From positions 186,001 to 250,000 of the forward strand of contig NZ_VCLB01000004.1 in the NCBI RefSeq assembly GCF_005924265.1: a DNA stretch of 64,000 nt, in the 5' to 3' direction. The position numbers and the translations under genes are program-made. The notes beneath the pieces are model-generated. The model saw only the letters and a program-made list of their open reading frames with translations. It had not been told where the DNA came from and searched no databases. Source of the DNA: Martelella lutilitoris (GTDB lineage: Bacteria; Pseudomonadota; Alphaproteobacteria; Rhizobiales; Rhizobiaceae). Shown in pieces: positions 3,562 to 54,368 of this stretch (position 1 is the first letter of the stretch; each line of letters starts with the position of its first letter).

Positions 3562-3637
<76 letters not shown>

Positions 3638-45276: not shown

Positions 45277-47600
45277 GCCAGAAACCGCGTTCCCGCACGA
45301 AGGACACCGCCTCGCCGAAATCCGATGAACCGGTCATCCATGGCGCGGTGCCGCCGCGCGATGTTTTGTTGAAATTCATCGCCGATAACCCCGAGAGGGC
45401 ATCGAAACGCGAAGTCGCGAAGGCTTTCGGCATCAAGGGCGCGGCGCGCGTCGAGTTGAAGGACCTGCTGCGCGACCTCGAGGACGAGGGACTGCTGCAG
45501 AAAAAGCGCAAGAGCCTCGTCCGTCCCGGAGCGCTGCCGCCCGTGACCGTGCTCGACATCACCACCCGCGACAAGGATGGCGAGCTGATCGGCCGCCCGG
45601 CCGAATGGCCGGAGGAGGAAGGTGCAGCACCCGCCGTCCTCATCCGCCAGTCCGGCGGCGGCAAGAACGGCAAGCGCAAGGTTCCCACAGCCGGGCTCAA
45701 TGACCGGGTCGTCGCCAAAATCTTTCCGTCGAAGTCCGAGACCGGCCCGGCCTATACCGCCCGCATCATCAAGGTGATCGATAAGCGGCGCGCCGCAGCC
45801 CTTGGCGTCATCCGCATGTTCGATGACGGTTCGGCCCGGCTGATGCCGATCGACCGACGCGACAACGAGATCGCGATTGACGAAACCGCGCTCAACGGCG
45901 CGAAGGACGGAGACCTTGTCGAGGCCGACGTCAAGCGCTCGGGCCGCTATGGCCTGCCGCGCGGCGAAGTTCTGACGATCGTCGGCTCGCTGGCGTCGGA
46001 GAAAGCCGTCTCGATGATCGCGATCCATTCCCATGGCATTCCGCACATCTTCCCCAAGGATGTGATCGACGAGGCGGACGCGGCAAAGCCCGCGACGATG
46101 AAGAACCGCGAGGACTGGCGCGACGTGCCGCTCGTCACCATCGACCCGGCGGATGCCAAGGACCATGACGACGCGGTTTTCGCCGAGCCGGATGAGCGAC
46201 CCGAAAACGAAGGCGGCGTCGTCGTCACCGTCGCGATCGCCGATGTCTCCTGGTATGTGCGCCACAAGTCGGCGCTCGATAGAGAGGCGCTGAAGCGCGG
46301 CAATTCGGTCTATTTCCCCGATCGCGTCGTACCGATGCTGCCGGAACGCATCTCCAACGACCTCTGCTCGCTGCGCGAGGGCGAGGACCGGCCCGCCATG
46401 GCCGTGCGCATGGTGTTCTCGAAGGATGGCCGCAAGGCCTCCCACACCTTCCATCGCATCATGATGAAGAGCGCGGCGAAGCTTTCCTACCAGCAGGCGC
46501 AGGCCGCCATCGACGGCAGGACGGACGAAAAGACCGGCCCGCTGCTGGAGCCCGTGCTGAAACCGTTGTGGGCCGCCTACGAGACGATGAGGCGCGGGCG
46601 CGACCGCCGCCAGCCGCTGGAACTCGACATGCCCGAGCGCCGCATCCTCCTGAAGGAGGATGGCACGGTGGACAAGGTGGTGGTGCCGCCGCGCCTCGAT
46701 GCGCACAAGCTCATCGAAGAAATGATGATCCAGGCGAATGTGGCGGCTGCCGAGACGCTGGAGAAAAAGCGCCAGGCGCTGATCTACCGCACCCATGACG
46801 CGCCGTCGCTTTCCAAGCAGGAGAGCCTGCGGGAGTTTCTGGCGACGCTTTCCATTCCGCTCGCCAAGGGTGGCAATCTCAGGGCCAATTCCTTTAATGG
46901 CATTCTGGCAAAGGCCGAACAGTCGCCGCAGAAGGACCTGATCAACGAAATGGTGCTGCGCTCGCAGAGCCAGGCCGTCTATTCGCCGGAAAATGGCGGG
47001 CATTTCGGCCTCAATCTGATGAAATACGCGCATTTCACCTCGCCGATCCGCCGCTATGCCGACCTCATCGTCCACCGCGCACTGGTCGCCGCCCTCCATC
47101 TCGGCGAGGGCGGGCTGGAGCGCGAGGAGGAAGAGCAGCTCGACGATATCGCCGCCGAGATCTCCACCTTCGAGCGCCGCGCCATGGCCGCCGAGCGCGA
47201 GACCGTCGACCGCCTGATCGCCCACCATCTGGCCGGCCGTATCGGCGAGAGTTTCGACGGCCGCGTTGCCGGCGTCACCCGTTCGGGCCTGTTCATCGCT
47301 CTGCCGGAATATGGGGCCGATGGCTTCGTGCCGGTCTCCACCCTTGGCGGCGATTATTACGTGCATGACGAGGTGCGCCAGGCGCTGGTCGGCGAGCGAT
47401 CCAATCTCGGCTATCAGCTTGGCGACAATGTCGAGGTGCAGCTTGTGGAGGCGATCCCGCTTGCGGGCGCGCTACGCTTCGAGATGCTGTCGTCGGGCCG
47501 CAAGCTTCCCGCCCCCACCCGGTCCTTCCACAAATCGAAGACCGGACGCCCGATGCGCGGCGGCGGCGCGGGACGGCGCAGCGGACGCGGTCAGCGCTGA
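45273..47600 (+). CDS. rnr: Ribonuclease R
   Basis: RNase R is a 3'-5' exoribonuclease for structured and defective RNAs. The 775-residue protein starts with TTG, overlapping the topA stop by four bases. After an N-terminal winged-helix region (FIADNPERASKREVAKAFGI) and cold-shock-like domain comes the RNB catalytic domain with VTIDPADAKDHDDAVFAEPD, then an S1 domain (GVTRSGLFIALPEYGADGFV) and a basic tail. The order topA-rnr is conserved in related rhizobia. Confidence 0.96.
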   Translation: MSQKPRSRTKDTASPKSDEPVIHGAVPPRDVLLKFIADNPERASKREVAKAFGIKGAARVELKDLLRDLEDEGLLQKKRKSLVRPGALPPVTVLDITTRDKDGELIGRPAEWPEEEGAAPAVLIRQSGGGKNGKRKVPTAGLNDRVVAKIFPSKSETGPAYTARIIKVIDKRRAAALGVIRMFDDGSARLMPIDRRDNEIAIDETALNGAKDGDLVEADVKRSGRYGLPRGEVLTIVGSLASEKAVSMIAIHSHGIPHIFPKDVIDEADAAKPATMKNREDWRDVPLVTIDPADAKDHDDAVFAEPDERPENEGGVVVTVAIADVSWYVRHKSALDREALKRGNSVYFPDRVVPMLPERISNDLCSLREGEDRPAMAVRMVFSKDGRKASHTFHRIMMKSAAKLSYQQAQAAIDGRTDEKTGPLLEPVLKPLWAAYETMRRGRDRRQPLELDMPERRILLKEDGTVDKVVVPPRLDAHKLIEEMMIQANVAAAETLEKKRQALIYRTHDAPSLSKQESLREFLATLSIPLAKGGNLRANSFNGILAKAEQSPQKDLINEMVLRSQSQAVYSPENGGHFGLNLMKYAHFTSPIRRYADLIVHRALVAALHLGEGGLEREEEEQLDDIAAEISTFERRAMAAERETVDRLIAHHLAGRIGESFDGRVAGVTRSGLFIALPEYGADGFVPVSTLGGDYYVHDEVRQALVGERSNLGYQLGDNVEVQLVEAIPLAGALRFEMLSSGRKLPAPTRSFHKSKTGRPMRGGGAGRRSGRGQR

Positions 47601-47948
47601 GGCAGACGACGGGCTTTCCCGGACTTTTATAAGACGAACCCGGCGCCACCCACGCCCCGCTCGGCGAAGGCTTTCGCCTGACAGGCGGCGGCGGCTGGAC
47701 CAACGGCAACGCCACGGTCTGCGCCGCGCGGTAAGGCGCCGGAACGGCTTTACGGCCTTTGCCGGCGGTTCGCCGGATGAACGACACAGCACCATGCGAG
47801 CCCTGGGTAAAGCCCCACCGCCATCAATCTTCACCCTTGAGGGGGAGATCGGGTGGCATTGACCATGCCGCGCTACCCGTCACAGTCACTCCCGCACCAT
47901 TGCGTTTCGTCAGACTTTCAGGATAAATCGGGCGTCACGGAGGATGCC
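47601..47948. other. Intergenic stretch with a possible decayed gene end
   Basis: This 348-bp gap between rnr and the DUF983 gene contains no intact gene. A short frame at about 47634-47735 reads through a Gly-rich segment (LTGGGGWTNGNATVCAAR) to a stop but has an in-frame stop just before it, so it could be the remains of a lost gene. The GGAGG ribosome binding site at 47939-47943 belongs to the DUF983 gene. Confidence 0.4.
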
Positions 47949-48395
47949 ATGCCCGAACAGGCCGACGACAATCACCACCGCTATGGCGGCAAGCCGGACG
48001 ACGAGCGCCGGCTCGCCCCCGCCATGCTGACAGGCCTGAAGGGCCGCTGCCCCGCCTGCGGCAAGGGCAAGCTGTTCTACAAATATCTGAAGACCGTGGA
48101 CCATTGCGAGAACTGCGGCACGGAAATCCACCACCACCGCGCCGACGACCTGCCCGCCTATCTTGTCATCCTCGTCCTCGGCCATTTCATGGTCGGCGGC
48201 TATATGACCGGCGCGGAACTCTTCGACGTGCCCGATTGGGTGCACCTCGCCGTCTGGGTGCCGCTCACGGCGCTTACCGCCTTCGCCCTCATCCAACCCA
48301 TGAAAGGCGTCGTCATCGGCCTGCAATGGGCGCTCAAGATGCACGGCTTCGACGGCAAGGGACGCGAAGAGGCGGTGGATTATTCCGAGCGGTGA
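47949..48395 (+). CDS. DUF983 membrane protein with zinc-ribbon-like Cys motifs
   Basis: This 148-residue protein has two CxxC pairs (CPACGKGKLF and CENCGTE) and three hydrophobic segments, a DUF983 pattern. Visible segments are LPAYLVILVLGHFMVGGYMT and VHLAVWVPLTALTAFALIQP. Function is unknown; rhizobial genomes keep it beside rnr. I chose the ATG at 47949 behind GGAGG. The next gene to the right is of different composition, so this gene marks the end of the core block. Confidence 0.9.
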   Translation: MPEQADDNHHRYGGKPDDERRLAPAMLTGLKGRCPACGKGKLFYKYLKTVDHCENCGTEIHHHRADDLPAYLVILVLGHFMVGGYMTGAELFDVPDWVHLAVWVPLTALTAFALIQPMKGVVIGLQWALKMHGFDGKGREEAVDYSER

Positions 48396-48530
48396 TTTAC
48401 TGGTCTCTCCTCTTCAACGGAGAAGACGTATTCTTCAGAAAATCGTTATTTATTAAAATGATATTGCAAAAAATAATTATATAAGTATTTTAAATGAAGG
48501 TCAATATTGATTCGGGTAGCGAGAGTTGAA

Positions 48531-49928
48531 ATGGCTATTCAGCGTGTAAGAGATCCTGTTCACAATTTAATACAGTTCGACACCACGAATAGTGAAATTG
48601 AGCGAGTTGCCTGGAAACTAATTCAGTCTAGACCTTTTCAGCGATTGCGACGAGTGAAACAACTAGGGTTTTCCGAGTTGGTCTACCCCGGCGCCACTCA
48701 TACGCGCTTCGCGCATAGCATTGGAGTATTCCATACCGCGCGAAATTTGATGAATATAGTGCAAGAAAAAGCGCCTGAGAAACAAGAAACGTCTGAAAAA
48801 ATAGCGCTTGTGGCAGCGCTCGTTCACGACGTTGGCCACGGTCCGTTTAGCCATGCTTTTGAAGCTGTCGGAGAGCGCCTAAACCTTAAGCTAGCAGATC
48901 ACGAAGTAATGAGCGACGAACTCATACGAAACGGTGAAATCGCCGAGATTTTAAACAATGATATTATGAGCGGTTTCGCCTCGAACGTTGCGAATATGAT
49001 AAAAAAAGAAGGGCGTATAACGCTTCATAACTCTGTCGTATCGAGCCAATTCGATGCTGACCGACTAGATTACATGCAAAGAGATAGACTAATGACTGGA
49101 AGTCAGCACTCGGTAATTGACCTCGCTTGGCTTCTAGCGAATTTGGACGTTGGCCAAGTAGCTGCAGGCATTGATGAAACAAAGGTTGGGTCTATTCCGA
49201 CCTTTGTTATTGGACCGAAAGCGATACAGGCGGCAGAAGCGTATGTATTGGGTCTATTTCAGCTTTACCCGACCATATACTTCCATAAAGCGACACGAGG
49301 AGCAGAAAAGTTATTCTCTGAAATTCTTGTGCGCTTATTCTATCTCGTTCGAAATGGAGATATTCAGAACACCGGCCTCCCGAAAAACCATCCATTAGTC
49401 CGATTTGCTAATGACCCAGAAAGCATCGAAACCGCACTCTCTCTGGATGACGCCGTTGTGTGGGGAGCAATGCATCTTATGATTGACTCGGAAGACCCTG
49501 TTCTGTCTAGTTTTTCCGATCGCCTGTTGAACCGAAAACTCTTTAAATGCTTCGATATTCGGGCGGAAATTACTCATAGGTGCGATCCCCACAATTCACG
49601 CGATCCAGATAGTTTGGCAAAGATCGAAAAGTGTTGCGCATCTGCGGTGCTGAAGTTACAGGAATGGCAGAAAAACGAAGATAGGATTATGCCAAGGATT
49701 TTGACCGACCAGGCTGAGCGCAGACCTTACAAGACCAATGGTGTCGGCAATGGCCAAACCGAGCAAATCAATGTGCGAACTGATGGCGGCGAATTGATTG
49801 ACATTAAGCAGAGGTCCGAAATCGTGAACTCTCTGAGTGTTTTTAAACTTAATCGAGTGTATTATGATGATTCGCAAAAGCACTATCTGGAAGAAATTCA
49901 GAAAATCGTTTACGGGGAGATCGACTGA
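48531..49928 (+). CDS. HD-domain dNTP triphosphohydrolase-like protein (YwfO/SAMHD1 type)
   Basis: This 465-residue protein belongs to the HD superfamily branch of bacterial YwfO and human SAMHD1, enzymes that hydrolyse deoxynucleoside triphosphates. Metal ligands are visible: GATHTRFAHSIG (H57, H62), LVHDVGHGPFSHAFE (H99-D100) and QFDADRLDYMQRD (D175). The conserved PFQRLRRVKQLGF segment precedes the first His. I set the start at ATG 48531; TTG at 48507 behind GAAGG is an alternative. Base use is far lower in GC than in rnr, pointing to transfer. The stop shares one base with the start of the partner gene, so the two are coupled. A role in phage defence or nucleotide control is inference. 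Confidence 0.82.
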   Translation: MAIQRVRDPVHNLIQFDTTNSEIERVAWKLIQSRPFQRLRRVKQLGFSELVYPGATHTRFAHSIGVFHTARNLMNIVQEKAPEKQETSEKIALVAALVHDVGHGPFSHAFEAVGERLNLKLADHEVMSDELIRNGEIAEILNNDIMSGFASNVANMIKKEGRITLHNSVVSSQFDADRLDYMQRDRLMTGSQHSVIDLAWLLANLDVGQVAAGIDETKVGSIPTFVIGPKAIQAAEAYVLGLFQLYPTIYFHKATRGAEKLFSEILVRLFYLVRNGDIQNTGLPKNHPLVRFANDPESIETALSLDDAVVWGAMHLMIDSEDPVLSSFSDRLLNRKLFKCFDIRAEITHRCDPHNSRDPDSLAKIEKCCASAVLKLQEWQKNEDRIMPRILTDQAERRPYKTNGVGNGQTEQINVRTDGGELIDIKQRSEIVNSLSVFKLNRVYYDDSQKHYLEEIQKIVYGEID

Positions 49929-50449
49929 TGTCTGACTTCAAGATAGAAGAAGTGATTAATATTATTCAAGACGCAGGCGGAAAAATTGTAGGCAGAACAC
50001 GTCTTCAAAAGATTGCTTATCTACTCACCGCAACTGGCCTAGATGGAAATTTCTCGTTTTCTTATAAGCATTACGGTCCTTTTAGCGAAACTCTTGCCTC
50101 TTCTGCCGAGATAGGTGCGTTAGTTGGAAAGCTAAACGAAGTCCAAAAACAGACTTCGTGGGGCGGGACTTACTCTATCTACACTGCTGATGAGAATGCC
50201 CAAGAAAAAGATCACTCCGCTCGATCCATGCTAGCCTCAATCGCATCTGATTCTAATTCAATTGAGCTTGAACTTGCAGCCACTGCAGTTTTTTTGGCTT
50301 ACGAAGGCTATGAAGATGCTTGGGAAGAAACTGCTCAACGTAAACCGGAGAAAGCCTCTCCTGAGCATCTAGAAAACGCCAAAACGCTGTTGAAGAAATT
50401 GGCAACAGTCTCTGTACCTCGGCCGTTACCTACGACCCTGTTGAACTAG
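49928..50449 (+). CDS. YwgA/Panacea-like partner protein
   Basis: This 173-residue protein has the pattern of YwgA and Panacea (DUF4065-related) proteins: GRTRLQKIAYLLTATGLDGN and YKHYGPFSETLASSAEIGA. YwgA-like genes sit beside YwfO-type HD genes in Bacillus as well. Panacea proteins act as antitoxins in PanAT systems. Here the TGATG overlap with the HD gene implies fixed stoichiometry. The gene is AT-rich like its partner (hand count at 49921-49980: 24 of 60 bases G or C). Whether it inhibits or helps the HD protein is unknown. Confidence 0.7.
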   Translation: MSDFKIEEVINIIQDAGGKIVGRTRLQKIAYLLTATGLDGNFSFSYKHYGPFSETLASSAEIGALVGKLNEVQKQTSWGGTYSIYTADENAQEKDHSARSMLASIASDSNSIELELAATAVFLAYEGYEDAWEETAQRKPEKASPEHLENAKTLLKKLATVSVPRPLPTTLLN

Positions 50450-50467
50450 AACTTTATGTGCAGAGTT

Positions 50468-50803
50468 TTATAAACTAGGCCACCCCTGACCGCCCGAAAG
50501 CTTCATCAGCACGATCCCCGCAATAATCAGCGCCGCCGCGATCAGCCTTCCGGGCGTTGCCGCCTCGCCGAGGACGGCCACGCCTATGGCGAAGGCGCCG
50601 ATGGCGCCGATGCCGGTCCAGATCGTGTAGGCCGTGCCGAGCGGGAGCGCGCGCATGGAGACCGACAGAAGCACGAAGCTGGCGGCAGCGGCGACGATGG
50701 TGATGAGCGTGGGCGTTATGAGGGTGAAGCCCGCGGACTTCTTCATCGAAAAGGCCCAGACGACTTCGAGAACACCGGCGATTGCGAGAATGAACCAGGC
50801 CAT
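50468..50803 (-). CDS. gdx: SMR family guanidinium exporter (Gdx/SugE)
   Basis: This 111-residue inner-membrane protein has four spans and is a small multidrug resistance transporter. The Gdx-type signature MRALPLGTAYTIWTGIGAI and the conserved Glu in LEVVWAFSMKKSAG favour guanidinium export over the EmrE drug type. A guanidine-II riboswitch lies in the leader (50833-50880), which independently supports this substrate. The ribosome binding site AAGGAGG lies 50812-50820 on the minus strand. Confidence 0.92.
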   Translation of the reverse strand: MAWFILAIAGVLEVVWAFSMKKSAGFTLITPTLITIVAAAASFVLLSVSMRALPLGTAYTIWTGIGAIGAFAIGVAVLGEAATPGRLIAAALIIAGIVLMKLSGGQGWPSL

Positions 50804-50832
50804 GGCACGGCCCTCCTTTTGATCAAGAGTGG

Positions 50833-50880
50833 CCGGGCCGTCCCGGATGGGTGACGATTGGCGCGGGTCGTCCCGCGCGG
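50833..50880 (-). promoter_or_regulatory. Guanidine-II (mini-ykkC) riboswitch
   Basis: The minus strand leader of the SMR gene carries two hairpins with ACGR loops, the hallmark of this class. The 5' hairpin is GCGGG-ACGA-CCCGC (about 50863-50877). The second is CCGGG-ACGG-CCCGG (50833-50846). The linker between them is 14-16 bases and the second hairpin ends about 12 bases before the ribosome binding site, so ligand-dependent translation control is likely. Confidence 0.9.
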
Positions 50881-50909
50881 GTTCTATCTAGCTCCCGCAC
50901 GCCCCGGGG

Positions 50910-51836
50910 TCAATCGGCGAGGCAGACCCTGTTCTTGCCGGCGCGCTTGGCCCTGTAGAGCGCGGCATCGGTGCGGGCGTAGAGTTCGGCCTGATCCTCG
51001 CAGAGCGCGGCGGAGGCAATGCCGGCGGAAAAGGAATAGGCAAATTCCGGATACTCGGAAAAGGGCCTCAGCGTCCCAACCGCCTCAAGCATGGCCTCGA
51101 CGGCGCAAGCGGCCTCTGCCGGCGTCATGCGCGGCAGGACAAGGCCGAATTCCTCGCCGCCGAGCCGGCCGAAACAGTCGACGCGCCGGACCAGCGTCGA
51201 TATCTTCTGGGCAAAGCCGATCAGCAACCGGTCGCCGAAGGCATGACCGAAGCGGTCGTTCACCTGCTTGAAATTGTCGACGTCGAAGATCGCGAAACAG
51301 CCCGCCGGGCTCCTGCCCGCCTCCGGCCCACGATCAAGCATGTCGGAAAGCCGCTCCATCAAAAAGCGACGGTTGGCGATGCCCGTCAGGTCGTCCGTCA
51401 GCGACGAGCGCAGCGCGATGTCGCGCTCCTGCCTCAGCGTGCGTCCCTGGGCGCGAAGCGGCGTGATGTCGCTTGCAAGACACAGCATCCAGCCGTCCTC
51501 GTCCACCGTCTCCGTCATCCACAGCCAGGTGTCGTCATGCACATCGGTCTCGAAGGCGCGGAACGGCACCTTGCCGCGACGCGACAACGTGCCCTTCAGC
51601 CAGAGTTCGAAATCGGAACTGGAAATCACCGTCCCGCGCCGTGCGTGGAAATTGCGGCGCATCAGATCCGGCCAGAGCGGATATTCCTCCGCCTCGAGAA
51701 AAAAGGTCTCCCGGTATTTCCGGTTGGCGAAGATGAGCCTGTCCTCTTCGTCGAAAACCGCGAAGAACACGTCGGTCAGATCCATGAAGCGAAGGATGCG
51801 TCTCAGTTTGCTTTCCATGAAAAAGCAACGTCCCAT
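50910..51836 (-). CDS. PAS-GGDEF diguanylate cyclase
   Basis: This 308-residue protein makes c-di-GMP. An N-terminal PAS-like domain (about residues 15-130, DLTDVFFAVFDEEDRLIFAN) is followed by GGDEF. The active signature is intact: FGRLGGEEFGLVLPR. The RxxD inhibitory site (RRVD) sits five residues before it, so product inhibition is likely. I chose the ATG at 51836 behind AAGGA; an ATG at 51818 also opens the PAS part. It is soluble, without spans. Confidence 0.9.
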   Translation of the reverse strand: MGRCFFMESKLRRILRFMDLTDVFFAVFDEEDRLIFANRKYRETFFLEAEEYPLWPDLMRRNFHARRGTVISSSDFELWLKGTLSRRGKVPFRAFETDVHDDTWLWMTETVDEDGWMLCLASDITPLRAQGRTLRQERDIALRSSLTDDLTGIANRRFLMERLSDMLDRGPEAGRSPAGCFAIFDVDNFKQVNDRFGHAFGDRLLIGFAQKISTLVRRVDCFGRLGGEEFGLVLPRMTPAEAACAVEAMLEAVGTLRPFSEYPEFAYSFSAGIASAALCEDQAELYARTDAALYRAKRAGKNRVCLAD

Positions 51837-51912
51837 CTGGTCCTTGGTATGAGCGCACGGCACGGACAATGGCACGCCTCTGTCCCATCTATGGTTAACT
51901 TCGGCGAACGGG

Positions 51913-52632
51913 TCAACCGGAGGACCGGCTTGCTGTGTCAGCAAAAACGTTTTTGGCTCTACGGGAAATGCCGAGCCAGACCACATGCTTCAGTCCGCGC
52001 TTCTTTCGGTGGGCGCGCACCGTCTTCGCCTCGGTCTCGAACCCGCTCTTCTTCAGGCGCGCGGTGAAGCGGTCATCGGGGTGCGCCGACCAGATGGCGA
52101 GTACGCCGCCCTTTCTCAGGGCCCGTTTCGAGGCGGCAAGACCGGAAAGGCTGTAGAGCCGGTCATTGTCTCCCCGCGTCAGCCCGTCCGGTCCGTTATC
52201 GACATCCAGCAGGATCGCATCGAAGCCGTTCTGCGAGGCGGCGATCAGCGCGGTCACGTCGCCCTCATGGATCTCCACGCGGGGGTCATCGAGCGAGCCC
52301 TCAAAGACCTCGGCCATCGGCCCGCGCGCCCAGGCGATGACCGCCGGCACCAGTTCGGCGACCACGATACGGGCATCCCTGGGCAGGACCGCAAGGGCGG
52401 CGCGCAGCGTGAAGCCCATGCCGAGACCGCCGATCAGGACAGACGGCCGGTCCCGACCGGCGATCCTTTCGGCAGCAAGTTCCGCAAGCGCCTCCTCCGA
52501 GCCCGAGAGCCGGCTGTTCATCAGCTCGTTCGCGCCGAGCATGATGGAAAATTCTCCGCCGCGCTGCTTCAGTCGCAGCGTGCCCGCCTCGCCCGGAATT
52601 TCAGCCTCGTCGAGTTCGACCCATGGAATCAT
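51913..52632 (-). CDS. Spermidine-synthase-like SAM-fold protein
   Basis: This 239-residue protein has the class I methyltransferase/polyamine-synthase fold. Its glycine loop is VLIGGLGMGFTLRAALAVLP, followed by an acidic strand (VVAELVPAVIAWAR) and the DAILLDVDNGPDGLTRGDND motif. The DN near the active site resembles spermidine synthases, but their full signature is not clear, so it may instead be a methyltransferase. I placed the start at 52632 behind GAGGGAG; the frame runs on upstream without support. Confidence 0.75.
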   Translation of the reverse strand: MIPWVELDEAEIPGEAGTLRLKQRGGEFSIMLGANELMNSRLSGSEEALAELAAERIAGRDRPSVLIGGLGMGFTLRAALAVLPRDARIVVAELVPAVIAWARGPMAEVFEGSLDDPRVEIHEGDVTALIAASQNGFDAILLDVDNGPDGLTRGDNDRLYSLSGLAASKRALRKGGVLAIWSAHPDDRFTARLKKSGFETEAKTVRAHRKKRGLKHVVWLGISRRAKNVFADTASRSSG

Positions 52633-52927
52633 TGCCGGCTCCCTCACCAGAATGCAGTGGCTGCGCCTGGCGTGTTTAAGGGCAGAATCGCCCCTGCGGC
52701 AATAAAAGTTTGGCCGGACGGGCAAGGCAACCGGTTTTACGGCGACCCAGCCTTGACTTTTGCGCGAAGATTCGTAGTGTCCGCGCAGATTTTGCCGTGG
52801 CGCAGGCCCGGCGAGCCCAGCGAAGCGTCCGATGCGGGCGCTTCTTGATTTTTTAGGTAACAGTCCGGGCGTACCGGTTCCGCTTTCTCCAGGATGGAGG
52901 GCGGATTGCTCTTGAAGGCAGAAGAAC

Positions 52928-53095
52928 ATGGCAAAAGCAACAACGATCAAGATCAAGCTGCTGTCGACGGCAGACACCGGCTTTTTCTACGTCACCAAGA
53001 AGAACAGCCGCACGATGACGGAAAAGATGGTCAAGACCAAATACGATCCGATCGCGCGCAAGCACGTCGAATTCAAGGAAGCCAAGATCAAGTAA
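52928..53095 (+). CDS. rpmG: 50S ribosomal protein L33
   Basis: This 55-residue protein is L33, a small basic protein of the large subunit. The sequence [20 protein letters not shown] followed by [14 protein letters not shown] is the standard form without the zinc Cys pairs. A ribosome-binding GAAGG lies upstream. A strong terminator at 53121-53150 follows. The 295-bp stretch before it (52633-52927) lies between divergent genes and should hold its promoter. Confidence 0.97.
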
Positions 53096-53120
53096 GATCC
53101 TTGTTTTTTCTGGATTTGTG

Positions 53121-53150
53121 AAAGCCCGGCCTCTCTGGACCGGGCTTTTT
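53121..53150. terminator. Bidirectional terminator between rpmG and the MFS gene
   Basis: The stem AAAGCCCGG with CCGGGCTTT is followed by TTTTT on the plus strand and preceded by AAA. It ends one base before the MFS stop codon at 53151, so it can serve both convergent genes. Confidence 0.9.
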
Positions 53151-54368
53151 CTATGCGCCGGCCCGTTTCAGAAGACGGCGACGCAGACCAGCCATCAGGA
53201 CAGCCAGGGCAAGGCTGACGACGCCCATCGCCGCGATCTGGCCCGGATAGAAGACGCCGGCATCGATCAGATAGCCGGTCAGCCCCGGGCCGACGGCGGT
53301 GGAGAACACGATCGCCGCGATCACCACGGCGCGGATGCTGCCGAGATGGCGCGCGCCGTAAAGCTCCGGCCAGAGCGAGCCGTTGAGCGTGCCCGACGCG
53401 CCCATCGAGCAGCCGATCAGCGGCATGAAGACGAAGGGCGTCCATGCTGCACCCGAAAAGCCGATGATCAGGCAGGCGGCGGCGATCGGCAGCAACATGA
53501 AGGGCATGACCGCGACCGATGAGAACCGGTCGACCAGAACGCCGGTTGCCAGCATCGCCGCCAGGCTCGAAATCGACATCAGGAAGAACGAGCCCGCAAA
53601 CATTTCCAGCGTCCAGCCGCGCAGTTCCACCATATAGACCTGGTGGAAGAAGATCGTGGTGCCGATGAAGGGCGGGGCAAGGAAGACGGCGAGGATGGCC
53701 CAGAACAAGGGGTCGCGCAGCACCTCCCCGCGCGTCCAGTCGCGCGGGGCTGTCTGCACCTTGTGGCCCTTGGCTGCCGATTGCGGCTCCCGCTCCACCC
53801 GCATCAGGGCGACGATCAGCGGCAGGCCGACGGCGAGCGTCAGGGCGGCGGCGGCAACCCAGCTTCCGCGCCAGCCGACCAGGCCGGACACCGCCACGAA
53901 GATCAACGGAAAGCTGGCTTCCGCCGTCTGCAGGCCGAGCGAGGAGAAGGAGACCGCCCGCCCGCGCATGGCGTTGAACCAGCGGCCCATGGCGGTCACC
54001 GCGATATGGCTCATCATGCCCTGGCCGAAAAGCCGCAGCATATAGAGCGCAATGAACAGCAGGAAAATCCACTGGGAAAAAGCCATCAGCAGGCAGGCAA
54101 GCGCGAGAAGCGGCATCACGAGGAACACCACCTGCACCACGCTGCGATGGTCGACGATCCGGCCGAGACGCGTGAGCGTTGCCGCGCTCAGGAGCGTCGC
54201 GCCCATGTAGATGAGGCCGAAATCGCCGTGGCTCAGATCATATTCGGCGCGGATATCGCCGGCCGAAAGCGAGATGAAATAGGTTTGGCCGAAGGCGGTG
54301 AAGTAATTCATCAAGAACGCGCCGCCCACCCAGCGGGCGTTTTCGCGCAGGAATGCAAGGACGGTCAT
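53151..54368 (-). CDS. MFS transporter
   Basis: This 405-residue inner-membrane protein has 12 hydrophobic spans in two bundles. The MFS loop 2-3 motif is degraded but present (GATLLSAATLTRLGRIVDHR). The central hydrophilic loop is at about residues 186-215. No clear substrate signature is visible; the subfamily is unassigned. It ends at the bidirectional terminator. A long inverted repeat lies just upstream of its start codon (54377-54439). Confidence 0.85.
   Translation of the reverse strand: MTVLAFLRENARWVGGAFLMNYFTAFGQTYFISLSAGDIRAEYDLSHGDFGLIYMGATLLSAATLTRLGRIVDHRSVVQVVFLVMPLLALACLLMAFSQWIFLLFIALYMLRLFGQGMMSHIAVTAMGRWFNAMRGRAVSFSSLGLQTAEASFPLIFVAVSGLVGWRGSWVAAAALTLAVGLPLIVALMRVEREPQSAAKGHKVQTAPRDWTRGEVLRDPLFWAILAVFLAPPFIGTTIFFHQVYMVELRGWTLEMFAGSFFLMSISSLAAMLATGVLVDRFSSVAVMPFMLLPIAAACLIIGFSGAAWTPFVFMPLIGCSMGASGTLNGSLWPELYGARHLGSIRAVVIAAIVFSTAVGPGLTGYLIDAGVFYPGQIAAMGVVSLALAVLMAGLRRRLLKRAGA

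What the first reader, a model, noticed from the sequence alone, without database searches (positions are those of the whole stretch)
48531..50449. AT-rich two-gene cassette: HD dNTP-hydrolase-like protein with YwgA/Panacea-like partner
The two coding sequences overlap by one base (TGATG) and stand out by composition: 24 of 60 bases are G or C at 49921-49980 against 44 of 60 at 47161-47220 in rnr. The first gene keeps the HD metal ligands of the YwfO/SAMHD1 family. The second resembles YwgA and Panacea proteins. dNTP hydrolases act in phage defence and Panacea proteins act as antitoxins, so a paired defence or toxin-antitoxin module is plausible. I know of no described system with this exact pair.
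Basis: partly seen in the sequence, partly recalled or inferred. Interest (0 to 1): 0.8.

Follow-up and report, generated by a model that had tools for sequence, protein, structure and literature searches.

The report
Mobile dNTPase and DarG-like partner pair
Two overlapping genes of foreign origin encode an enzyme that probably destroys DNA building blocks and a small partner shaped like the toxin-binding end of a known antitoxin; relatives of the pair are scattered among bacteria and sometimes sit inside phage-defence operons, so it may be an untested defence module.

Summary
Window 48397-50480 is a 2.1-kb insert (44% GC, the lowest of any stretch that long in the window) carrying two overlapping genes, and is missing from matching sites in same-genus genomes. 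Gene 1 is an EF1143/YwfO-type SAMHD1-like dNTPase with metal ligands and HxxE dyad intact. Gene 2 shows no Panacea match; it is a free-standing homologue of the C-terminal, DarT-binding part of DarG (7yk3, Z 10.6; 74 of 75 relatives match the DarG model). Pairing is near-obligate seen from gene 2: of 80 genome loci found with gene 2 alone, 74 of the 77 decidable ones have the dNTPase directly upstream, usually overlapping; the trees mirror each other (Spearman 0.94, 61 pairs). The pair is rare and scattered in Alphaproteobacteria, and in some loci lies inside DISARM operons (drmD-drmMI-HD-partner-drmA-drmB). The gene arrangement itself is not new: Priestia megaterium has the two genes side by side at what I recall as the ywfO-ywgA position. 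My searches of open papers found nothing on ywgA. Best reading: a dNTP-depleting effector held in check by a protein inhibitor, used in defence. Inhibition, toxicity and phage protection are inferred, not shown.

The parts
48397..50480 (.). Inserted segment between the DUF983 gene and an SMR/SugE-type gene (SMR name by eye)
   Evidence: Lowest-GC 2-kb stretch of the window. The matching gap is 54 bp in same-genus genome G202 (L123), 20 bp in G199 (L129), and holds an unrelated 585-bp stretch in the near relative G205 (L120, flanks 92-95% identical).
48531..49928 (+). HD-domain dNTP triphosphohydrolase of the EF1143/YwfO family, 465 aa
   Evidence: phmmer to 2o6i E=2.6e-41; Pfam HD and HD_assoc_2 over cut-off; active-site residues invariant in an alignment of 64; model of relative L083 matches 2o6i at Z 36.0.
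49928..50449 (+). Partner, 173 aa: stand-alone DarG-C-terminal-domain/YwgA-like protein
   Evidence: AlphaFold2 pLDDT 95.9, pTM 0.92; top fold 7yk3_D, DarTG complex, Z 10.6 with next entry 5.6; profile hit to 7yk3_B, named DNA ADP-ribosyl glycohydrolase, E=1.2e-5; PADLOC DarG model positions 168-309 of 329, E=6e-9.
49926..49930 (+). TGATG stop/start overlap, probably coupling translation of the two genes
   Evidence: Read directly. 66 of 84 pairs (this one included) overlap by my start assignment, most often by 4 (17) or 14 (14) bases.

Best explanation
The pair is a mobile two-gene module. The HD protein is a SAMHD1/EF1143-type dNTP triphosphohydrolase that can drain the dNTP pool. The partner, a free-standing DarG-C-terminal-type domain made from the same message by translational coupling, binds the HD enzyme and keeps it restrained. 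Phage infection (a change in dNTPs, or loss or titration of the partner) releases the enzyme, dNTPs fall, and phage DNA replication stalls. Shown here: foreign insertion, intact dNTPase active site, partner fold, near-obligate pairing and co-inheritance, presence in some defence operons. Inferred: binding, inhibition rather than activation, trigger, and phage protection.
For: dNTPase: 2o6i E=2.6e-41; family profile 3.4e-95; Q44, L45, R59, H62, H99, D100, H103, H108, E111, H124, D177, Y181, D185 present and invariant in an alignment of 64. Partner fold: DarG in a solved toxin-antitoxin complex; 74 of 75 aligned partners match PADLOC's DarG model. Pairing: HD directly upstream in 74 of 77 decidable of 80 genome loci, and in both viral loci; overlap in 66 of 84; tree correlation 0.935, 0 of 2000 permutations. 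Mobility. Defence context: L050 reads DrmD-DrmMI-HD-partner-DrmA-DrmB; DISARM genes or fragments in 8 of 82 loci; PADLOC families among neighbours 79 and 166 against 19 among random genes. Precedent read here: in Clover the dNTPase CloA is toxic without its partner CloB and defends against phage (PMC12265719).
Against: No activity, binding, toxicity or phage data exist. HD enzymes of this family occur without the partner in many bacteria, at times in plain housekeeping surroundings (Listeria, Bacteroides), and the P. megaterium pair has housekeeping neighbours. In the class survey only 6 of 13 decidable non-self HD genes had a partner-like gene. Most pair loci, this window's included, show no recognised defence operon in the DNA I examined. 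8 of 82 against 0 of 20 control loci is not significant on its own. The partner family is not strikingly acidic (median net charge -1), so DarG-style DNA mimicry (recalled) may not carry over. The fused-chain model has pTM 0.82, which only hints at a defined contact.
Confidence: 0.45

Rival explanations
1. Housekeeping dNTP-pool control: the partner is an ordinary regulatory subunit (activator, stabiliser or allosteric sensor) of a dNTPase, as may be the case for ywfO-ywgA in Bacilli, and the alphaproteobacterial copies are accessory metabolic genes, not defence.
For: The HD family is widespread, with Pfam HD_assoc_2 in 10 of 14 control genomes, and sits among housekeeping genes in Listeria and Bacteroides. 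The pair in P. megaterium lies among housekeeping genes.
Against: In the alphaproteobacterial family of this genome the pair is rare (5 of 199 genomes once the DarG hit L008 is set aside), lies among differing neighbours and, here, in a recent insert; some relatives are embedded in DISARM operons. Core metabolic genes rarely behave so.
Confidence: 0.25
2. Selfish toxin-antitoxin module: HD is a dNTP-depleting toxin and the partner its antitoxin, kept by addiction, with defence at most a by-product.
For: Two-gene overlapping operon, mobile, with a partner of antitoxin fold. In Tokpelaia (L005/L069) the HD frame is interrupted while the partner is intact; HD is also split in L017 and L062, possibly by assembly error; two loci show the partner alone (L064, L072).
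Against: The effector comes first, unlike most type II modules (recalled). Lone HD relatives are tolerated widely. Loci were found through the partner, so broken-HD cases are favoured by design.
Confidence: 0.17
3. The partner is a DNA- or phage-sensing adaptor that recruits or activates the dNTPase (or, in DISARM operons, couples it to the DrmAB complex) rather than an inhibitor.
For: The N-terminal half of the partner aligns with winged-helix regulators at Z about 5. A partner-like gene also lies between the methyltransferase and restriction genes of a type III restriction system without HD (L081).
Against: Z near 5 is in the range that the tool calls common arrangement. The only fold match that stands out is the DarG chain of a toxin-antitoxin complex (7yk3).
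Confidence: 0.13

Closest known systems
ywfO-ywgA gene pair of Bacilli (seen here in Priestia megaterium NZ_CP140268.1, L149)
   Same: Same two families in the same order. HD: 33% identity, E=1.3e-48; partner: 27% identity, E=1.9e-6 by tblastn, E=1.2e-18 by a profile built without it, 98.2% hhalign probability.
   Different: There it lies among housekeeping genes with a 23-bp gap; here it is a mobile, overlapping insert. The names ywfO/ywgA for that region are from memory; B. subtilis itself was not read.
Clover (CloA-CloB)
   Same: Two-gene module with an HD dNTPase and a regulatory partner; CloA toxicity is restrained by the partner (PMC12265719, abstract and sections 3-5 read).
   Different: CloB is a nucleotidyltransferase that makes p3diT. 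The partner here is a DarG-C-terminal-type protein, and no nucleotidyltransferase gene adjoins it.
DarTG
   Same: The partner has the fold of the DarG part solved in 7yk3 (Z 10.6).
   Different: No macro domain and no DarT; the neighbour is a dNTPase.
EF1143 (E. faecalis dNTPase, 2o6i/3irh/4lrl)
   Same: Sequence and active site; fold for relative L083.
   Different: Whether EF1143 has such a partner was not examined here.
dGTPase defence protein (PADLOC PDLC02374, NCBIfam antiphage_dGTPase NF041026)
   Same: Shares the HD core over about 95 residues.
   Different: Far below the family cut-off (27.7 bits against 400); a different branch of HD dNTPases.
DISARM
   Same: Some relatives of the pair sit inside or beside DISARM operons (L050, L061, L033, L047, L066).
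   Different: No drm gene was recognised next to the pair in this window (ORFs, by eye). The terms 'HD domain' and (in one) 'dGTPase', 'DarG', 'phosphohydrolase' do not occur in the two DISARM-related papers searched by term.
Panacea (DUF4065)
   Same: Works-like only: a small antitoxin domain serving different effectors. The LQK and GP motif resemblance is by eye.
   Different: No Pfam SocA/Panacea match in any of 75 partners.

Membership tests
EF1143/YwfO-type dNTP triphosphohydrolase | HD metal ligands, HxxE dyad and dNTP-contact residues | tested here: met
   H62, H99, D100, D177, H108, E111, H124, Q44, L45, R59, Y181, D185 present, invariant in an alignment of 64. Their assignment to SAMHD1 roles is recalled; the Clover paper names the HD motif and the HE dyad.
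EF1143/YwfO-type dNTP triphosphohydrolase | Full-length fold | tested here: met
   Met for relative L083 (42% identical): Z 36.0 over 401 residues to 2o6i. The window's own HD was not folded; its phmmer match covers residues 6-340.
EF1143/YwfO-type dNTP triphosphohydrolase | dNTP hydrolysis | not testable with these tools
   Needs an enzyme assay.
YwgA family | Homology to the gene at the ywgA position, behind an HD gene | tested here: met
   L149 product E=1.2e-18 against a partner profile that excludes it, hhalign probability 98.2%; HD gene directly upstream. The ywgA name for it is recalled.
DarG antitoxin | C-terminal DarT-binding domain fold | tested here: met
   Z 10.6, 153 residues, 4.7 A, next entry 5.6; PADLOC model positions 168-309.
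DarG antitoxin | N-terminal macro (ADP-ribosyl hydrolase) domain and adjacent DarT | tested here: not met
   Protein is 173 aa and matches only the C-terminal part; the neighbour is HD. NCBIfam DarG 22.6 bits against a cut-off of 250.
Panacea / DUF4065 | Pfam SocA/Panacea domain match | tested here: not met
   None at E<=1 for the window protein, none in 75 aligned partners at E<=0.01.
Clover | HD dNTPase effector | tested here: inconclusive
   HD dNTPase of the same general kind, but CloA itself was not compared in sequence.
Clover | Adjacent CloB nucleotidyltransferase | tested here: not met
   The partner matches DarG/YwgA; flanking ORFs are DUF983- and SMR-like, by eye.
Type II toxin-antitoxin system | Two overlapping genes with co-inherited partners | tested here: met
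Type II toxin-antitoxin system | Toxicity of one product neutralised by binding of the other | not testable with these tools
   Single-chain model pTM 0.82 is only suggestive.
DISARM | drmA and drmB present | tested here: not met
   Not recognised among the ORFs at 46000-53500 of this window (by eye; no library scan of them was made); present in relatives L047, L050, L061, L066.

The most novel reading that the evidence does not exclude
The DarG C-terminal fold is a second promiscuous inhibitor module besides Panacea: detached from DarTG it has been coupled to a SAMHD1-like dNTPase (this pair) and to a type III restriction operon (L081), and the dNTPase-inhibitor cassette is a mobile phage-defence system that can also be built into DISARM operons as an extra dNTP-starving arm.
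Probability: 0.3. Interest if true: 0.82.

Novelty: new variant of a known kind. Interest (0 to 1): 0.63.

Why it matters
dNTPase effectors are a theme shared by animal (SAMHD1) and bacterial (dGTPase, Clover) immunity, and how they are held off in healthy cells is an open question. Here a dNTPase is paired with a protein of known inhibitor fold in nearly every locus found through that protein, which makes a direct binding and inhibition test possible. It also offers a hypothesis for the ywfO-ywgA pair of Bacilli, on which I found no paper, and suggests that some DISARM operons carry a cargo that the two DISARM-related papers I searched by term do not name.

Tried and rejected
Plasmid and phage records with the partner as query: no match at E<=1e-5 and E<=0.01; the search is insensitive, since it also missed the P. 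megaterium partner later reached through HD. Panacea membership: no Pfam hit. PADLOC PDC-M19A matched 23 of 75 partners weakly; no paper holding 'PDC-M19' was found. Canonical dGTPase (Dgt) membership: only about 95 residues match, far below cut-offs. DNA mimicry as in DarG (recalled): the family is not consistently acidic, so this is kept only as a possibility. Promoter scan: 2 sites, both on the minus strand, against 3.4 expected; 6 terminator-like sites against a mean of 2.1, none on the plus strand after the pair. tRNA-targeted integration: the only tRNA in the window is at 3562-3637. Integrase: no second large ORF in the insert that looks like one (by eye). Pairing in Bacillota could not be counted: 'of' takes only genome handles. 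Of the 14 plasmid regions read (L144-L151, L172-L177), L151 and L173 have no annotated feature and were judged by profile only; one of the 14, L149, has a partner.

Corrected on re-check: the partner profile had the P. megaterium protein (and L130-L132, L141) among its own 91 sequences, so its E=1.4e-34 for that protein was inflated. One search repeats the search with a profile of A8 (75 sequences, none of these): E=1.2e-18 for L149, 1.0e-12 for the DarG of L008, 1.8e-6 or better for the six class-survey partners; no other of the 14 plasmid regions is hit.

Rows dropped: loci L027, L045, L058, cut at contig ends, from the pairing count; L017, L062, L009, L019, L077 and any HD outside 420-520 aa, and L069 (interrupted), from the HD alignment; L048 and some near-duplicates from the partner alignment. 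Only the best 80 of 107 matching loci were returned. Neighbour proteins over 1300 aa were left out of both neighbour and control sets, and L064, L072, L081, L027, L045, L058 and L069 gave no neighbours. 134 of the 135 drawn control genes were scanned. L047 and L050 carry nearly identical DrmA (97.7%), so they are not independent.

Full report
Observation. The quoted base counts are exact. The low GC is not a cherry-picked dip: the insert is 44.0% GC against 61.8% for the window, and the lowest 2084-bp stretch clear of it is 56.0%. Third-position GC is 0.45 and 0.38 against 0.83 in rnr.

The insert. Of 13 genomes of the genus, this one included, I compared ten other sites next to the DUF983 orthologue. 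In G205, with flanks 92-95% identical, the window's 2084 bp are replaced by 585 unrelated bp. In G202 and G199 the flanks are 54 and 20 bp apart. In G081 the site holds other AT-rich DNA and, by eye, an IS66-like transposase frame. In two (G206, G201) homology stops after DUF983 within the 10 kb fetched, and in four (G204, G203, G200, G208) it resumes only beyond the SMR-like gene. So the pair was acquired at a variable site. The closest HD relatives seen are in Rhodovulum and in a Hyphomicrobiales metagenome bin (73-74% identity); Mesorhizobium L018 has 57%. Within the family to which the tool assigns the genome, 6 of 199 drawn genomes had a partner hit: this one, four with HD directly adjacent among differing neighbours, and one DarG.

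The first protein. It matches the E. faecalis dNTPase structure 2o6i at E=2.6e-41; a profile of 64 family members reaches 3.4e-95, with SAMHD1 structures further down the list. All metal ligands, the HxxE dyad and the residues that I recall as SAMHD1's dNTP contacts are present and invariant in that alignment. A model of the relative L083 matches 2o6i at Z 36.0 over 401 residues. It is not a canonical dGTPase: TIGR01353 scores 40.9 bits against a cut-off of 152. I regard dNTP hydrolysis as very likely but untested.

The second protein. No Pfam family covers it. AlphaFold2 gives a confident model (pLDDT 95.9, pTM 0.92). Its best solved relative is a chain of the M. tuberculosis DarTG complex, Z 10.6 with the next entry at 5.6. 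A profile of 75 relatives finds the same entry's chain B, named DNA ADP-ribosyl glycohydrolase (DarG), at E=1.2e-5. 74 of 75 match PADLOC's DarG model at E<=0.001, in the window's case at positions 168-309 of 329. It is thus a free-standing DarG-C-terminal-type domain without the macro domain. The 169-aa product behind the HD gene of Priestia megaterium belongs to the same family: E=1.2e-18 against a profile that excludes it, 1.9e-6 by direct tblastn, hhalign probability 98.2%. An earlier value, 1.4e-34, came from a profile that contained this protein and is withdrawn. That this is the ywfO-ywgA pair of Bacilli is my recall of gene order.

Pairing. A scan of one genome per species with the partner alignment alone found 107 relatives, of which the best 80 were returned. 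HD lies directly upstream in 74. Three are cut by contig ends. Three lack it: L064 and L072 (partner alone) and L081 (partner between type III methyltransferase and restriction genes). Both viral contigs have HD. By my start assignment 66 of 84 pairs, this one included, overlap. HD and partner trees correlate at Spearman 0.935 over 61 pairs, and none of 2000 permutations reaches this; shared descent of genomes contributes, since no species-tree control was made. The converse is weaker: among 385 alphaproteobacterial genomes, 15 have an HD match at E<=1e-20. Setting aside this genome and one cut at a contig end, 6 of 13 have a partner-like gene downstream, including all three with over 300 bits. 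Of 14 plasmid-record regions with an HD match, only P. megaterium has a partner; Listeria, Staphylococcus, Paenibacillus, Aerococcus, Bacteroides and the others do not.

Neighbours. In L050 the order is DrmD, DrmMI, HD, partner, DrmA, DrmB, all in one direction, with best PADLOC E-values from 0 to 1.1e-23. DISARM genes or fragments are found in 8 of 82 pair loci and 0 of 20 control regions. Five are clear (L033, L047, L050, L061, L066; L047 and L050 share nearly identical DrmA), two are DISARM-like with a DpdE/DrmD-type helicase (L076, L079), and one is a fragment (L057). The counts alone are not significant against so few controls; the position inside operons is the stronger argument. Among nearest neighbours, 134 and 135 proteins matched 79 and 166 PADLOC families at E<=1e-8, against 19 for 134 random genes. 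Many families are redundant models of one protein, and generic ones (mad3, mad8) hit the control set more often, so these are not counts of systems. Most pair loci, this window's among them, show no such neighbour in what I examined.

Mechanism. Clover is the nearest worked example: the dNTPase CloA defends, is toxic without CloB, and responds to phage-driven dTTP (PMC12265719: abstract and sections 3-5 read, passages of others). Here the regulator would be a protein of DarG-C-terminal type, whose relative is solved with its toxin. I propose that the partner binds and restrains the dNTPase until infection. Shown: active site, fold, pairing, mobility, occasional defence operons. Inferred: binding, sign of regulation, trigger, protection. 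A fused chain of a naturally in-register locus folds with pTM 0.82; without interface scores this is a hint only.

Known or new. The gene arrangement is not new, since P. megaterium has it. I found no paper on the pair: of 11 papers holding ywfO or ywga (listing) no title or abstract start points to it, the two ywfO papers of which I read passages do not treat it, and 'DarG' with 'YwgA-like' gives none. Searches for dNTPase with antitoxin or defence terms returned Clover, and no title or abstract start in the listings describes this pair. Two DISARM-related papers searched by term do not hold 'HD domain'. Subscription papers were not searched. I rate it a new variant of a known kind: dNTPase defence with a new type of partner, function untested.

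Noticed in passing
L144 (7977-9407), L145, L146, L147 (3626-7413): Rhizobial and Roseibium plasmids carry a more distant HD dNTPase (about 36% identity) as the last gene of a four-gene cluster: radical SAM, 3'-5' exonuclease, AAA ATPase, HD. In three of these four regions, annotated neighbours include a DncV-like nucleotidyltransferase, Shedu-like, HEPN/Toprim or three-component ABC genes. The radical SAM and AAA proteins of L147 match no PADLOC model at E<=0.001. It looks like another defence-type cluster; no paper search was made for it.
   Followed up: partly
L081:8162-13222: A partner-like (DarG-C-terminal-type) gene sits between the methyltransferase and restriction genes of a type III restriction system, with no HD match in the locus.
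   Followed up: partly
L005 and L069 (Candidatus Tokpelaia): The HD gene is interrupted by a stop codon while the adjoining partner gene is intact.
   Followed up: partly
L120, reverse strand, between DUF983 and the SMR-like gene: At the site where the window has the pair, the nearest relative has a 585-bp stretch with one gene that looks, by eye only, like an AlkB-type oxygenase; the site may be a small hot spot for accessory genes.
   Followed up: no
L079:1993-11324 and L076: Helicase (DpdE/DrmD-like), DrmMI-like methyltransferase, HD, partner and (L079) an HNH-nuclease match in a row: a DISARM-like or restriction-like operon with no drmA/drmB match in the DNA held.
   Followed up: partly
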